Positions 30,386 to 40,259 of a stretch of DNA of 43,086 nt are shown here, one piece after another. A program made the translations under genes and the position numbers. The DNA comes from Streptomyces sp. NRRL WC-3618 (lineage in GTDB: Bacteria > Actinomycetota > Actinomycetes > Streptomycetales > Streptomycetaceae), in assembly GCF_001280005.1 (NCBI RefSeq), contig NZ_LGDW01000463.1, positions 1 through 43,086 on the forward strand, written 5' to 3'. The stretch's first letter is position 1. Each line of letters starts with the position of its first letter. The notes under the pieces were generated by a model. It was not told the origin of the DNA and ran no database searches. It was given only the letters and a program-made list of their open reading frames with translations.

Positions 30386-31897
30386 TCAGAAGAGGCCGGT
30401 GTCGGCGAAGCGCAGTACCAGTTGGGGCGCGCCAGAGAGGGCGATGCCGAGGACGGCGGTCAGGGCGATCGCGGCCGTGAGGGGGGCGGGGGCGCGGTGG
30501 CGTTCCTCGGCCTTCTCGGGGGCGCGGAAGAGCAGGGCCGTCCACTGGAGGTAGTAGAAGAGGGCGATCACCACGTTGACCGCCATGATCACGGCCAGCC
30601 AGCCGATTCCGGCGTCCACGGCCGCGGAGAAGACGGTGACCTTCGCGAAGAGGCCGATGATCCCAGGCGGCAGCCCAGCGAGGCACAGCAGGAAGAAGCC
30701 CAGGACGAGCGCCGGCAGGGGGCGGGTGGCGTACAGGCCCCGGTAGTCGCTGACGCGGTTCAGGGGCTTCGTACGGGCCACCAGGGCCGCCACCGCGAAG
30801 GCGCCGAGGTTCACGGCGGCGTACATGAGGGCGTACGCGACGGTGGAGCCGATCGACTTCTGGGCGTCGTCGGAGTACGCGGCGGCGGCGATCGGGACCA
30901 GGAGGTAGCCGGCCTGACCCACGGAGGACCAGGCGAGCAGGCGTACCGCGCTGTACGCGCGCGTGGACTGCTGGCGCAGGGCGCCGACGTTGCCGACGGT
31001 CATGGTGAGCGCGGCCAGGGCGGCCAGTGCCGGGCCCCAGACGTCGGCGTACGACGGGAAGGCGACGACGGTGATGAGGATCAGGCCGGAGAAGCCGACG
31101 GCCTTGCCGACGACCGACAGATAGGCGGCGATCGGCAGGGGCGCCCCCACGTAGGTGTCGGGGACCCAGAAGTGGAAGGGTACGGCGGCCGTTTTGAAGG
31201 CGAAGCCGATGAGGGTGAGGACGACGCCTGCCTGGGCGAGGGTGTGGAACTGGGGGTCGACGTGCTGGATCCGGTCGGCGATCTCGGTGAGGTAGAGGGT
31301 GCCGGTGGACGCGTACACGAAGCTGATGCCCATGAGGCTGACCGCGGTCGCCGTCACGGACGACAGGAAGAACTTCAGGGCCGCTTCGGAGGATTTCCGG
31401 TCGCCGTGCCGGATGCCGACGAGGGCGAAGGCGGGCAGGGAGGCGACCTCCAGGGCGACGATCAGGGTCGCGAGGTCGCGGGAGGCGGGCAGGAGGGCGG
31501 CTCCCGCGGCGGAGGACAGCAGCAGGAACCAGTACTCCCCTTCGGGGAGTCCTCGGTCGGCGTCCTTGAGGGCCGTGACCGAGAGGAGGGCGGCGAGCAG
31601 TGCGCCGCCGAGGACCAGGAACTGGAGGACGAGGGTGAAGCGGTCGGCCGTGTAGCTGCAGACGTCGGCGCTGCCGGCGAGGCAGAAGGTGGAGCGGTCG
31701 CCGTCCAGGAGGGGCAGCAGGAGGAGAGCGGAGGCAGCGAGGCCGGCGACCGAGGTCCAGCCGAGGAGTGCCTTTCTGTTGTCGCCGACGAACAGGTCGG
31801 CGACCAGCACGGCGAGTCCCACGAAAGCCGCGACGGTGGGCGGTGCGATGGCGAGCCAGTCGACGGACTGGACGACGGACTGAGCCGGGGAGCTCAT
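30386..31897 (-). CDS. nuoN: NADH-quinone oxidoreductase subunit N (second-locus type)
   Basis: Antiporter-like proton-channel subunit of complex I, 503 aa, about 14 spans. The conserved glutamate lies in VALEVASLPAFALVG. The central lysine helix is in FKTAAVPFHFWVPDTYVGAP, and LSVVGKAVGF holds the next lysine. Its ATG overlaps the nuoM stop by 4 bases (ATGA), so the longer open frame upstream is not used. Last gene of the nuoA-N operon. Key residues are intact, so it looks like a working channel. Confidence 0.93.
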   Translation of the reverse strand: MSSPAQSVVQSVDWLAIAPPTVAAFVGLAVLVADLFVGDNRKALLGWTSVAGLAASALLLLPLLDGDRSTFCLAGSADVCSYTADRFTLVLQFLVLGGALLAALLSVTALKDADRGLPEGEYWFLLLSSAAGAALLPASRDLATLIVALEVASLPAFALVGIRHGDRKSSEAALKFFLSSVTATAVSLMGISFVYASTGTLYLTEIADRIQHVDPQFHTLAQAGVVLTLIGFAFKTAAVPFHFWVPDTYVGAPLPIAAYLSVVGKAVGFSGLILITVVAFPSYADVWGPALAALAALTMTVGNVGALRQQSTRAYSAVRLLAWSSVGQAGYLLVPIAAAAYSDDAQKSIGSTVAYALMYAAVNLGAFAVAALVARTKPLNRVSDYRGLYATRPLPALVLGFFLLCLAGLPPGIIGLFAKVTVFSAAVDAGIGWLAVIMAVNVVIALFYYLQWTALLFRAPEKAEERHRAPAPLTAAIALTAVLGIALSGAPQLVLRFADTGLF

Positions 31898-33471
31898 CGG
31901 GGGCCTCCAGAGAGGAGCTGCTGCACGGCCGGGTCGGTCAGGCCGAGGAGGACCTTCGGCCACAGTCCGGCGACGACGGTGAGGGCGACGAGCGGGGTCC
32001 AGGCCGCGAATTCGTACGTCTGCACGTCGGCGAGTCGCGGAGTGTCCGGTTGCGGGGCGGCGCCCATGCAGACGCGGCGTACGACGACGAGCATGTACGC
32101 GGCGGTGAGCAGGGTGCCGAACGCGGCGATCGCCATGAAGGTGAGGAAGGCGGGGCGGCTGAGGTCGTCGGCGGGGTTGAACGCGCCGAACAGGGCCAGC
32201 ATCTCGCCCCAGAACCCGGCGAGGCCGGGCAGTCCGAGTGAGGCGACGGCGGCGAAGGCCACGAGGCCGCCGAGGCGCGGGGCCCGGCCGTAGAGGGCGG
32301 CGCCGGTGTGGTCGGCGAGGGTGTCGAGGTCGGTGGTGCCCGTGCGGTCCTTCAGCGCGCCGACCAGGAAGAAGAGGAGGCCGGTGATCAGGCCGTGGGC
32401 GATGTTGGCGAAGAGCGCGCCGTTGACGCCGGTCGGGGTCATCGTGGCGATGCCGAGCAGGACGAAGCCCATGTGGCCGACGGAGGAGTAGGCGATGAGC
32501 CGCTTGAGGTCGCCCTTCGCGCCCTGCCGGGCGAGGGCCAGGCAGGCCAGGGAGCCGTAGATGATCCCGACGACGGCGAAGGCGCCGAGGTAGGGCGCGA
32601 ACGTCCGGAATCCGTCGGGTGCGACCGGCAGCAGGATGCGCACGAACCCGTACGTGCCCATCTTGAGCAGGACGCCCGCGAGCAGGACCGAGCCGACGGT
32701 CGGGGCGGCGGTGTGGGCGTCCGGCAGCCAACTGTGCAGCGGCCACATCGGCGTCTTGACCGCGAGCCCGATCCCGATCGCCAAAACGGCGGTGACCTGC
32801 ACTGATGTGGTCAGTCCTGACCCGTTGTCAGTGGCGAGTGCCATGATGTCGAACGTGCCCGCTTTGATCCCGATCAGGAGCAGGCCCAACAGCATGACCA
32901 CGGATCCGAGCAGGGTGAAGAGGATGAACTTCCAGGCCGCCCGGGTCCGTTGCTCACCGCCCCAGCGGGCGATGAGGAAGTACATCGGGATGAGCACCGT
33001 CTCGAAGGCGAGGAAGAACAGCAGCAGGTCGAGGACGGCGAAGGTGGCGAGGGTGCCGGACTCCAGGACGAGGAGGAGCGCGACGAATGCCTTCGGGGAA
33101 GGGCCGGAGGGCAGCTTGAAGGAGGAGTAGAGCGCGCAGAGGAAGGTGAGGAGCGCGCTCAGGACCAGAAGGGGGAGGGAAATGCCGTCGACGCCGAGGT
33201 GGATCCGCACGTCGAGTGCGGGGATCCAGCTGATGTCGGTCGTGGCCTGCATCTTCGACGGATGGTCGTGGTCGAAGCCGAGCGCGAGGACGATCGCGGC
33301 GATGAGCACCACACCGGTGACCGTCACGCCGTGCCGCAGCACGGCCTGCTCGGGCGACTTCCCCTTCAGCCCGGGCGGGGCCGGCAGGAGAGCCGCGACG
33401 GCGCCGATCAGCGGGCCCGCGACGAGAAATGCCAGAAGGAACTGCATCACTGACTCGTTGATATCGATCAC
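31894..33471 (-). CDS. nuoM: NADH-quinone oxidoreductase subunit M (second-locus type)
   Basis: Antiporter-like subunit, 525 aa, about 14 spans. Key proton-path residues are visible: Glu in FLAFETVLIPMYFLIARWGG, Lys in AVKTPMWPLHSWLPDAHTAA, and the helix LAGVLLKMGTYGFVRI. GTG start 6 bases after the nuoL stop; an ATG eight codons on is an alternative. It overlaps nuoN at its stop. Same operon and presumably the same membrane arm as nuoL and nuoN. Confidence 0.93.
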   Translation of the reverse strand: MIDINESVMQFLLAFLVAGPLIGAVAALLPAPPGLKGKSPEQAVLRHGVTVTGVVLIAAIVLALGFDHDHPSKMQATTDISWIPALDVRIHLGVDGISLPLLVLSALLTFLCALYSSFKLPSGPSPKAFVALLLVLESGTLATFAVLDLLLFFLAFETVLIPMYFLIARWGGEQRTRAAWKFILFTLLGSVVMLLGLLLIGIKAGTFDIMALATDNGSGLTTSVQVTAVLAIGIGLAVKTPMWPLHSWLPDAHTAAPTVGSVLLAGVLLKMGTYGFVRILLPVAPDGFRTFAPYLGAFAVVGIIYGSLACLALARQGAKGDLKRLIAYSSVGHMGFVLLGIATMTPTGVNGALFANIAHGLITGLLFFLVGALKDRTGTTDLDTLADHTGAALYGRAPRLGGLVAFAAVASLGLPGLAGFWGEMLALFGAFNPADDLSRPAFLTFMAIAAFGTLLTAAYMLVVVRRVCMGAAPQPDTPRLADVQTYEFAAWTPLVALTVVAGLWPKVLLGLTDPAVQQLLSGGPR

Positions 33472-39792: not shown

Positions 39793-40259
39793 GTCAGGAC
39801 GCCCTTCTTGTATGCGTAGAGCAGGCCCACGGCGAGGAAGCCGAGGAAGATGAACATCTCGACGAGGGTGGCCGCTCCGTAGCCGGGGGCCGCGAAGACG
39901 GTCGCCCACGGGAACAGGAAGATCGAGTCGACGGCGAAGACGACGTAGAGGAAGGCGTAGACGTAATAGCGGACCTGGGTGTGGGCCCAGCCCTCGCCCA
40001 CGGGGTCGACACCGCACTCGTACGTCAGGAGCTTCTCGGGGGTCGGGACCACGGGACGCAGCAGGCGGCCCGCTCCGAAGGCGACCGCGACGAAGAGCAC
40101 GCCGACGGTGGCGAGCAGTCCGACGACGGAGTAGGACTGGAAGTACTCCGACGCTGACGACATCGATGATGTCGCCGACATCGACGCCGACGCCGACGTG
40201 GACGACGTCGATGTCGCTGCGATGTACTCCGTCGTGGCTACGGCGGTCGGTACCGGCAC
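39783..40259 (-). CDS. nuoA: NADH-quinone oxidoreductase subunit A with Ser/Thr-rich N-terminus (second-locus type)
   Basis: Three-span membrane subunit, 158 aa. The conserved core is LLTYECGVDPVGEGWAH then VRYYVYAFLYVVFAVDSIFL and a last span GFLAVGLLYAYKKGVLTW. I chose GTG at 40259 because GAGGGA lies about 5 bases upstream; this gives a leading 38-residue Ser/Thr/Ala-rich segment. Internal ATG codons closer to the first span lack ribosome sites. First gene of the operon. A candidate promoter lies 56 bases upstream. Confidence 0.88.
   Translation of the reverse strand: MPVPTAVATTEYIAATSTSSTSASASMSATSSMSSASEYFQSYSVVGLLATVGVLFVAVAFGAGRLLRPVVPTPEKLLTYECGVDPVGEGWAHTQVRYYVYAFLYVVFAVDSIFLFPWATVFAAPGYGAATLVEMFIFLGFLAVGLLYAYKKGVLTWT

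What the first reader, a model, noticed from the sequence alone, without database searches (positions are those of the whole stretch)
30386..40259. Ten-gene complex I operon with no nuoD, E, F or G
nuoA-B-C-H-I-J-K-L-M-N are packed with 4-base or similar overlaps, and nuoC runs straight into nuoH, where nuoD-E-F-G usually lie. The NADH module is therefore absent and so is the 49-kDa NuoD, which even the 11-subunit ancestral complex keeps. Yet NuoB and NuoI keep all cluster ligands, and NuoH, K, L, M and N keep their proton-path residues. This looks like a membrane oxidoreductase with an unknown electron donor, or a pump arm that borrows NuoD from the main 14-gene locus. I recall a comparable partial locus in S. 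coelicolor; I know of no assigned function.
Basis: partly seen in the sequence, partly recalled or inferred. Interest (0 to 1): 0.8.

Follow-up and report, generated by a model that had tools for sequence, protein, structure and literature searches.

The report
Second complex I with relocated NuoD
These ten genes are most of a second, NADH-module-free respiratory complex I; its seemingly missing NuoD gene sits elsewhere in the genome, beside a relative of the enzyme that modifies NuoD in mitochondria, so the enzyme looks complete and draws on an electron donor still to be proven.

Summary
The ten-gene operon nuoA2-B2-C2-H2-I2-J2-K2-L2-M2-N2 is real (minus strand, 40259-30386), but NuoD is not missing from the organism. 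An unlinked paralogue, nuoD2 (400 aa, contig C55), belongs to it. (1) In other actinobacterial classes nuoD2 lies within 1.5 kb of nuoH2 in 61 of 72 genomes; in the window's genus and class in 0 of 22. The linked loci read are 11-gene sets without nuoEFG. (2) Unlinked NuoD2 nests among in-operon NuoD2, apart from main NuoD. (3) The N2-cluster arginine switch pairs NuoB2(Thr) with NuoD2(Arg) and NuoB1(Arg) with NuoD1(Thr), without exception among motif matches. (4) Three genomes keep only this complex: no NuoD1, no NuoF. nuoD2 lies within 10 kb of a MidA/NDUFAF7-family methyltransferase gene in 50 of 55 genomes. Borrowing the main NuoD is therefore unlikely. Best reading: a complete 11-subunit quinone-reducing proton pump without the NADH module; the donor is unproven, ferredoxin from neighbouring korAB being the best candidate. 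nuo2 and unlinked nuoD2 are in print for Streptomyces; the pairing evidence and methyltransferase link were not met in the papers seen.

The parts
39783..40259 (-). nuoA2 (158 aa)
   Evidence: PF00507 106 bits; start codon uncertain; 4-base overlap with nuoB2
39127..39786 (-). nuoB2 (219 aa), N2-cluster subunit; Thr at the arginine-switch position (VSGTVTDKMAP)
   Evidence: PF01058 101 bits; C67 C68 C133 C163 invariant in 13 sequences; Thr
38108..39130 (-). nuoC2 (340 aa: NuoC domain plus 163-aa Pro-rich tail); in other classes nuoD2 follows here
   Evidence: PF00329 114 bits; tail
37143..38111 (-). nuoH2 (322 aa)
   Evidence: PF00146 335 bits; 72-90% identity to 12 relatives
36535..37140 (-). 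nuoI2, two 4Fe-4S motifs
   Evidence: NuoI models in NCBIfam; Fer4 in Pfam; both Cys motifs
35843..36538 (-). nuoJ2 (231 aa)
   Evidence: PF00499 122 bits (scanned from one codon downstream)
35469..35843 (-). nuoK2 (124 aa)
   Evidence: PF00420 98 bits
33478..35472 (-). nuoL2 (664 aa)
   Evidence: PF00361 240 bits, PF00662 46 bits
31894..33471 (-). nuoM2 (525 aa)
   Evidence: PF00361 208 bits
30386..31897 (-). nuoN2 (503 aa)
   Evidence: PF00361 176 bits; NuoN is the best NCBIfam model, below its cut-off
40436..41668 (+). sensor histidine kinase, divergent from nuoA2 (AbrC-like by position)
   Evidence: PF13796 and PF07730 over cut-off, PF02518 just under; a relative stands at the same place in 8 of 8 loci L212-L219
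41833..43086 (+). second histidine kinase (inferred), cut by the contig end; korA-korB lies beyond it in relatives
   Evidence: translation and the second kinase hit in L212-L219; not scanned against Pfam in this frame

Best explanation
The operon encodes ten subunits of a second complex I of the 11-subunit kind (no NuoEFG). The eleventh, NuoD2, is encoded elsewhere, next to a MidA/NDUFAF7-family methyltransferase gene. NuoB2, C2, D2 and I2 form the quinone-reducing arm, with electrons entering at the two 4Fe-4S clusters of NuoI2, passing to cluster N2 in NuoB2 and on to (mena)quinone at the B2/D2/H2 junction; H2, A2 and J2-N2 form the proton-pumping arm. Shown by sequence: composition, pairing of D2 with this locus, existence without the main complex in some genomes, key ligands. 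Inferred: assembly into one enzyme, proton pumping, quinone use, methylation of the NuoD2 HRG arginine, and the donor, for which reduced ferredoxin (for example from 2-oxoglutarate:ferredoxin oxidoreductase KorAB) is the best candidate.
For: In-operon nuoD2 in other classes: nuoH2 within 1.5 kb in 61 of 72 genomes with NuoD2 at 399 bits or more, against 0 of 22 in the window's genus/class (10 on one contig 146-418 kb apart, 12 on different contigs); 23 loci read with nuoD2 between nuoC2 and nuoH2 show no E/F/G hit inside the set. Tree rooted on main NuoD: split D2 inside the in-operon D2 clade (SH-aLRT 95-97%), main NuoD apart (100%); 27 of 43 splits shared with NuoH2 and 20 of 43 with NuoB2. 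Arginine switch without exception among motif matches. Co-occurrence: D2 and C2 both in 51 of 61 genomes, both absent in 5; NuoH2/NuoD2 in 298 genomes: 91 both, 14 H2 alone, 4 D2 alone, 189 neither. G268, G139, G156 have NuoD2 and NuoH2 but no NuoD1, no second NuoH, no NuoF. A block of NuoD1 that is missing in split NuoD2 is also missing in 27 of 27 in-operon actinobacterial and 3 of 3 Bacillales NuoD. PF02636 within 10 kb of D2 in 50 of 55 genomes.
Against: No biochemistry and no structure of the complex. D2 is unlinked throughout the window's class sample, so co-transcription cannot be argued. The arginine switch is a clade-level trait with few independent events. Tree congruence is also expected from vertical descent alone. 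Four of 61 genomes have D2 without C2 (G001, G017, G049, G051) and one C2 without D2 (G028); all are assemblies of 630-1,300 contigs, and a later search found NuoH2 in G017 but not in G001, G049 or G051 (G049 is rated 100% complete). G112 keeps D2 but its ten-gene locus looks decayed. 14 of 105 genomes with an H2 hit have no D2 at 399 bits. In 24 of 72 other-class D2 genomes no PF02636 was found at E 1e-6. 90 of 95 D2 genomes also have a NuoF-family gene. NuoA2 and NuoH2 lost acidic residues. No donor subunit is in the locus.
Confidence: 0.85

Rival explanations
1. Pump arm that borrows NuoD1 (and perhaps NuoEFG) from the main 14-gene locus, giving a hybrid complex I.
For: A hybrid was suggested in PMC9239103, where nuo2 and nuo genes change oppositely in a mutant (passage).
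Against: Cognate NuoD2 exists; NuoB2(Thr) with NuoD1(Thr) would leave no arginine at cluster N2; three genomes have nuo2 without NuoD1 and NuoF.
Confidence: 0.07
2. NuoD2 serves the ten-gene set, but NADH still enters through NuoEFG borrowed from the main complex, or through another NuoF-like protein.
For: 90 of 95 genomes with NuoD2 also have a NuoF-family (PF10589) gene, and this genome has two PF10589 matches, of which only the main nuoF was located; the locus has no donor subunit of its own.
Against: NuoF-less genomes G268, G139, G156, and G197 by PF10589 alone; the second PF10589 match is not constant with nuo2 (G196 and G312 have one); NuoD2 lacks a block present in all 5 NuoD1 sequences read, although cyanobacterial NdhH, also without NuoEFG, probably keeps it (inferred from lengths).
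Confidence: 0.15
3. Decaying paralogue without function.
For: The ten-gene locus of G112 looks decayed (L205); a nuoJ2 pseudogene seems to be meant in S. ambofaciens (passage).
Against: NuoB2 77-92% and NuoH2 72-90% identical to 12 relatives each, ligands invariant; NuoC2 present in 52 of 61 genomes; PMC3765725 says its data suggest a single expressed operon (passage).
Confidence: 0.03
4. The complex is as described, but the donor is not ferredoxin: for example F420H2 through an FpoF-like protein, or flavodoxin.
For: Fpo uses F420H2 (recalled); flavodoxin or ferredoxin is named for an epsilonproteobacterial complex, and no common donor protein was found for 11-subunit complexes (passages).
Against: korAB neighbours nuoA2, but korAB also stays near the main nuo locus in genomes without nuo2, so this is soft. 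FpoF was not searched for.
Confidence: 0.4

Closest known systems
[quoted passage not shown] similar 11-gene loci in Bacillales and Acidimicrobiia
   Same: Same subunits, no NuoEFG, donor open (PMC11238625, passages; loci)
   Different: Here nuoD is unlinked and sits beside a methyltransferase gene; the host also has a 14-subunit complex
Streptomyces nuo2 cluster (SCO4599-4608) with unlinked nuoD2
   Same: Same locus type; the unlinked nuoD2 is already in print (PMC3765725, PMC8388888; passages)
   Different: PMC9239103 (passage) calls its function unclear and says it lacks NuoC and NuoL, which this locus has
Mitochondrial NDUFS2-NDUFS7 with NDUFAF7
   Same: HRGXE arginine in the 49-kDa subunit, Thr in the partner, NDUFAF7-family gene (PMC8042128, PMC3829151; passages)
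   Different: Methylation is not shown here; no NADH module
Cyanobacterial NDH-1 and archaeal Fpo
   Same: 11 core subunits without NuoEFG and other donors (recalled; ferredoxin for cyanobacteria in a passage); the FpoD model aligns to NuoD2 in one stretch
   Different: No NdhS or FpoF/FpoO-type subunit among the ten genes
Anaerosomatales (Coriobacteriia) complex I without NuoEFG
   Same: Actinobacterial, no NuoEFG, ferredoxin proposed (PMC9686372, passage)
   Different: nuoD stands in the gene row between nuoH and nuoC; isolates from the subsurface

Membership tests
[quoted passage not shown]
   Ten in the window, NuoD2 on C55
[quoted passage not shown]
   None among the ten genes or in the 16 kb around nuoD2; nuo2 present without NuoF in 3 genomes
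[quoted passage not shown]
   NuoB2, NuoI2 Cys; GPQHPSTHG and GYMHRG in NuoD2; roles of these motifs recalled
[quoted passage not shown]
   Needs biochemistry
14-subunit NADH:quinone oxidoreductase | NuoEFG in the complex | tested here: not met
   Absent from the locus; NuoF absent from three nuo2-bearing genomes
Fpo (F420H2 dehydrogenase) | FpoF input subunit | not tested
   No search for FpoF was made; none among the ten genes
Group 4 [NiFe] hydrogenase | Two CxxC nickel-binding motifs in the large subunit (recalled) | tested here: not met
   No CxxC in NuoD2 (sequence); its best models are NuoD
MidA/NDUFAF7 methyltransferase (neighbour of nuoD2) | PF02636 match | tested here: met
   64.8 bits against cut-off 23.3
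MidA/NDUFAF7 methyltransferase (neighbour of nuoD2) | Dimethylates the HRGXE arginine of NuoD | not testable with these tools
   Needs mass spectrometry

The most novel reading that the evidence does not exclude
Aerobic Streptomyces-type actinobacteria run two complex I enzymes: a 14-subunit NADH enzyme (B-Arg/D-Thr type) and an 11-subunit ferredoxin:menaquinone pump (B-Thr/D-Arg type) fed by 2-oxoglutarate:ferredoxin oxidoreductase KorAB, whose NuoD2 arginine is methylated by a dedicated NDUFAF7-type enzyme encoded next to it; nuoD2 and the methyltransferase gene left the operon but stayed together.
Probability: 0.4. Interest if true: 0.72.

Novelty: new variant of a known kind. Interest (0 to 1): 0.52.

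Why it matters
It gives a reading for a locus left in print as of unclear function: a complete alternative complex I, not a fragment. It offers a paired natural experiment, two complex I lineages with opposite placement of the N2 arginine in one cell, only one of which has an arginine for the NDUFAF7-type enzyme encoded beside its NuoD. That makes the role of arginine methylation, and of an NADH-free entry into respiration in antibiotic producers, directly testable in a laboratory Streptomyces.

Tried and rejected
Borrowed NuoD1: rejected (see rivals). NuoD relic between nuoC2 and nuoH2: none seen; PF00346 has no match on the window contig, and the NuoC2 tail is Pro-rich. NuoD2 as a hydrogenase subunit: no CxxC.

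korAB as proof of the donor: weakened by my own control. korA lies within 12 kb of nuoC2 in 37 of 52 genomes with NuoC2 (2 far on one contig, 13 on different contigs; a few korA hits are fragments), but also 16-23 kb from the main nuoC1 in genomes without nuo2 (G052, G055, G060) or with nuoC2 far off or on another contig (G038, G041, G043, G046, G050). So the adjacency may be old synteny.

MidA as obligatory partner: not so; 24 of 72 other-class D2 genomes show none at E 1e-6, and 13 of 83 PF02636 genomes lack a D2 at 399 bits. D2 motifs read HRG in genomes without it too (for example L079, L091, L092).

Proteomic abundance of nuo2: PMC9739823 (passage) says SCO4599-4608 products are abundant in S. 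coelicolor, but the main text of the paper it cites has no 'SCO460' and no 'SCO4599', so I do not lean on it. Missing-block idea (NuoEFG docking): no structure was read, so only an observation. No structure prediction, fold search or the search for homologous proteins was run. Papers were seen as search listings, abstract beginnings or passages only.

Rows set aside: NuoD hits at 313-372 bits (other NuoD types) were not counted as D2; G079 was left out of the nuo2-only set because it has a NuoD fragment at a contig end; G197 (D2 and H2, no PF10589) and G164 (the same, but with a NuoD1-type hit) were not followed up; loci where the motif pattern did not match were not counted.
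Full report
Observation. The window is the whole of contig C462 (43,086 bases) of a 9.34-Mb, 499-contig genome. Ten ORFs on the minus strand read A-B-C-H-I-J-K-L-M-N with short overlaps or gaps and match the complex I families. No NuoD, E, F or G is among them.

The missing NuoD. PF00346 finds two NuoD genes in the genome: NuoD1 in the main nuo locus on C224, and an orphan on C55 (loci L005, L006). The orphan, here NuoD2, is 400 aa from the start I chose, 35% identical to NuoD1, and keeps GPQHPSTHG and GYMHRGAEK. 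Among 61 genomes (own included), 55 have NuoD2 (counted) and 52 have NuoC2 (counted): both in 51, neither in 5 (G052-G055, G060), NuoD2 alone in 4 (G001, G017, G049, G051) and NuoC2 alone in 1 (G028). Those last five are assemblies of 630-1,300 contigs; a later search found NuoH2 in G017 but not in G001, G049 or G051.

Rosetta loci. A survey of 298 genomes drawn from the phylum and reading of loci show what the ten-gene locus came from. In 23 loci read from other classes NuoD2 sits between nuoC2 and nuoH2 in an 11-gene set (some cut by locus ends, one or two small subunits without a hit) with no E, F or G hit inside it, often behind the end of another nuo set, which in L096 reads back through J to A with E-F-G. 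Of 72 other-class genomes with NuoD2 at 399 bits or more, 61 have nuoH2 within 1.5 kb, 1 has it far off on the same contig, 7 on another contig, 3 have no hit. In the window's genus and class, 0 of 22 are adjacent; one more, G112, has no NuoH2 at that threshold. Named records with linked loci include Acidimicrobiia, Ilumatobacter and Actinomarina; named records with NuoD2 and no nuo2 gene in the flanks fetched include Streptomyces, Kitasatospora, Actinomadura, Actinoplanes, Micromonospora and Terrabacter. Bacillales have linked 11-gene loci.

Descent. On a tree of 51 NuoD sequences rooted on main NuoD, unlinked NuoD2 lies inside the in-operon actinobacterial clade (SH-aLRT 95-97) and main NuoD forms its own side (100); the split label needs two changes, so leaving the operon may have happened more than once. 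On the NuoH tree the split label needs one change, at low support (53), on the NuoB tree two. NuoD2 shares 27 of 43 splits with NuoH2 and 20 of 43 with NuoB2 (shuffled maxima 2 and 3), and in 15 split genomes distances correlate at 0.88 and 0.94 (0 of 999 permutations each). Vertical descent alone can give this, so it shows common history, not contact.

Arginine switch. In Yarrowia the arginine near cluster N2 is in NDUFS2 (R121, HRGXE, dimethylated) and the partner has Thr; in Thermus the 49-kDa subunit has Thr and Nqo6 has Arg (PMC8042128, passages). In one search, NuoD2 has Arg in 14 of 14 distinct genes matched and NuoB2 has Thr in 15 of 15; main NuoD has Thr in 32 of 32 distinct genes and main NuoB Arg in 3 of 3. 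In one search, over further loci, mostly of other classes, 22 NuoD motifs have Arg (21 NuoD2-type, one in L098 of another type) and 2 have Thr (the main genes in L096 and L100); 28 NuoB motifs have Thr and 1 has Arg (the main gene in L096). No match broke the rule; loci where the pattern failed were not counted. NuoB2 therefore fits NuoD2 and not NuoD1. These are clade-level traits, so independent events are few; the Arg/Thr type also occurs with NuoF and G homologues (L098; mitochondria), so it marks the pairing, not the lack of NuoEFG.

Independence. G268 (window's class, 60 contigs, 100% complete), G139 and G156 (another class) have NuoD2 as the only NuoD, NuoH2 as the only NuoH and no NuoF by two families. 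G268 has the split arrangement, with hits for all ten genes (L088) and nuoD2 on another contig (L089). In these genomes nothing can be borrowed from a 14-subunit complex. Against this, 90 of 95 genomes with NuoD2 do have a NuoF-family gene, and this genome has two PF10589 matches, of which one is the main nuoF and the other was not located.

NuoD2 form. I chose the 24 alignment columns filled in all 5 main NuoD sequences and empty in the split NuoD2 (15 of 15 empty); they contain the segment around IHHFK. The same columns are empty in 27 of 27 in-operon actinobacterial and 3 of 3 Bacillales NuoD and filled at 8% in one Chloroflexi sequence. The FpoD model aligns to NuoD2 in one stretch. NdhH of cyanobacteria probably keeps the block (lengths), so it is not a strict mark of NuoEFG-less complexes.

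Methyltransferase neighbour. The gene beside nuoD2 is PF02636, the family of NDUFAF7/MidA (family link recalled); human NDUFAF7 methylates the NDUFS2 arginine and methylation is required for assembly (PMC3829151, abstract beginning and passages). Of 55 genomes with NuoD2 it lies within 10 kb in 50 (39 of them within 2 kb), on another contig or far away in 4, and was not found in 1; none of the 61 has it without NuoD2. In the phylum sample 70 genomes have both, 13 PF02636 alone, 25 NuoD2 alone, 190 neither. In seven other-class loci it directly follows nuoN2 on the same strand (L068, L072, L074, L087, L093, L095, L097). Since NuoD1 has Thr, NuoD2 is the NuoD with an arginine to modify at that place. 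That it is modified is inference.

Donor. In relatives korA-korB (2-oxoacid:acceptor oxidoreductase) stands divergent to nuoA2: next to it or within about 1 kb in L052, L056, L057 and L059, some 4 kb off in L053, and behind two kinase genes in the 8 Streptomyces-type loci read. In this genome korA starts 1.3 kb into contig C104 and the window contig ends inside the second kinase, consistent with the same order but not shown. Of 52 genomes with NuoC2, 37 have korA within 12 kb. The control weakens it: korA is also 16-23 kb from the main nuo locus in genomes without nuo2 or with nuo2 elsewhere. In print, SCO4594 is called an alpha-ketoglutarate ferredoxin oxidoreductase (PMC8981147, passage), and the AbrC system SCO4596-98 is divergent from SCO4599-4608 (PMC9739823, passage). 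A pyruvate:ferredoxin oxidoreductase was the major donor candidate for the 11-subunit enzyme of Desulfitobacterium (PMC11238625, passage). Ferredoxin is thus the best candidate, not a result.

What is known. PMC3765725 (passage) and PMC8388888 (passage) already state that Streptomyces have nuoA2, B2, D2 and further nuo2 genes with nuoD2 apart and the rest in an operon; PMC9239103 (passage) calls the function unclear and suggests a hybrid machinery. Searches for nuo2/nuoD2/nuoA2 (30 of 37 papers listed), NDUFAF7 with Actinobacteria (none), ferredoxin/complex I/Streptomyces (one) and NuoEFG/Actinobacteria (ten) showed, in listings and the passages named, no paper that pairs NuoD2 with nuo2 by synteny or the arginine switch or links it to NDUFAF7; only CC0, CC BY and CC BY-SA papers are held there.

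Verdict. An 11-subunit complex I with its NuoD gene relocated: a variant of a known kind.

Noticed in passing
window 38108-38600: NuoC2 carries a 163-aa tail (40 Pro, RTPED-like repeats) at the place where nuoD2 lies in other classes; in L052 the NuoC2 and NuoH2 hits are under 200 bases apart.
   Followed up: partly
window 39783-40259; L052, L065: NuoA2 has FAVD where the main NuoA has FDIE and NuoA2 of L069, L080, L083, L085 has FDVE.
   Followed up: partly
L205 (G112): Ten-gene locus apparently decaying: A2, B2, C2, NuoH2 in two pieces, I2, no J2-N2 hit nearby; NuoD2 and the methyltransferase gene still present (L086).
   Followed up: partly
L060, L207, L208 (G012): Locus split into nuoA2-B2-C2 and nuoH2-N2 about 0.65 Mb apart; the methyltransferase gene is also away from nuoD2.
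   Followed up: partly
L067 (G055): In a 1.4-Mb genome without NuoD2, NuoB-, NuoC- and NuoI-like hits stand next to korA; cut by contig ends.
   Followed up: no
L006 6455-8620: nuoD2 and the methyltransferase gene are convergent here but codirectional in L046 and L047; the pair keeps together while orientation flips.
   Followed up: no
L049, L050 (G054): A relative with two NuoD1-type nuo loci in 14-gene order and no nuo2.
   Followed up: no
L098 (G238): A complex I locus with HRG-type NuoD and F and G homologues placed after nuoH, an order unlike either nuo1 or nuo2.
   Followed up: no
L136 (Flexivirga caeni) 16415-19128: Two antiporter-like (NuoL/M/N-family) hits at about 22-34% identity some 6 kb from nuoD2; too distant to be nuo2 genes, perhaps Mrp-type.
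   Followed up: partly
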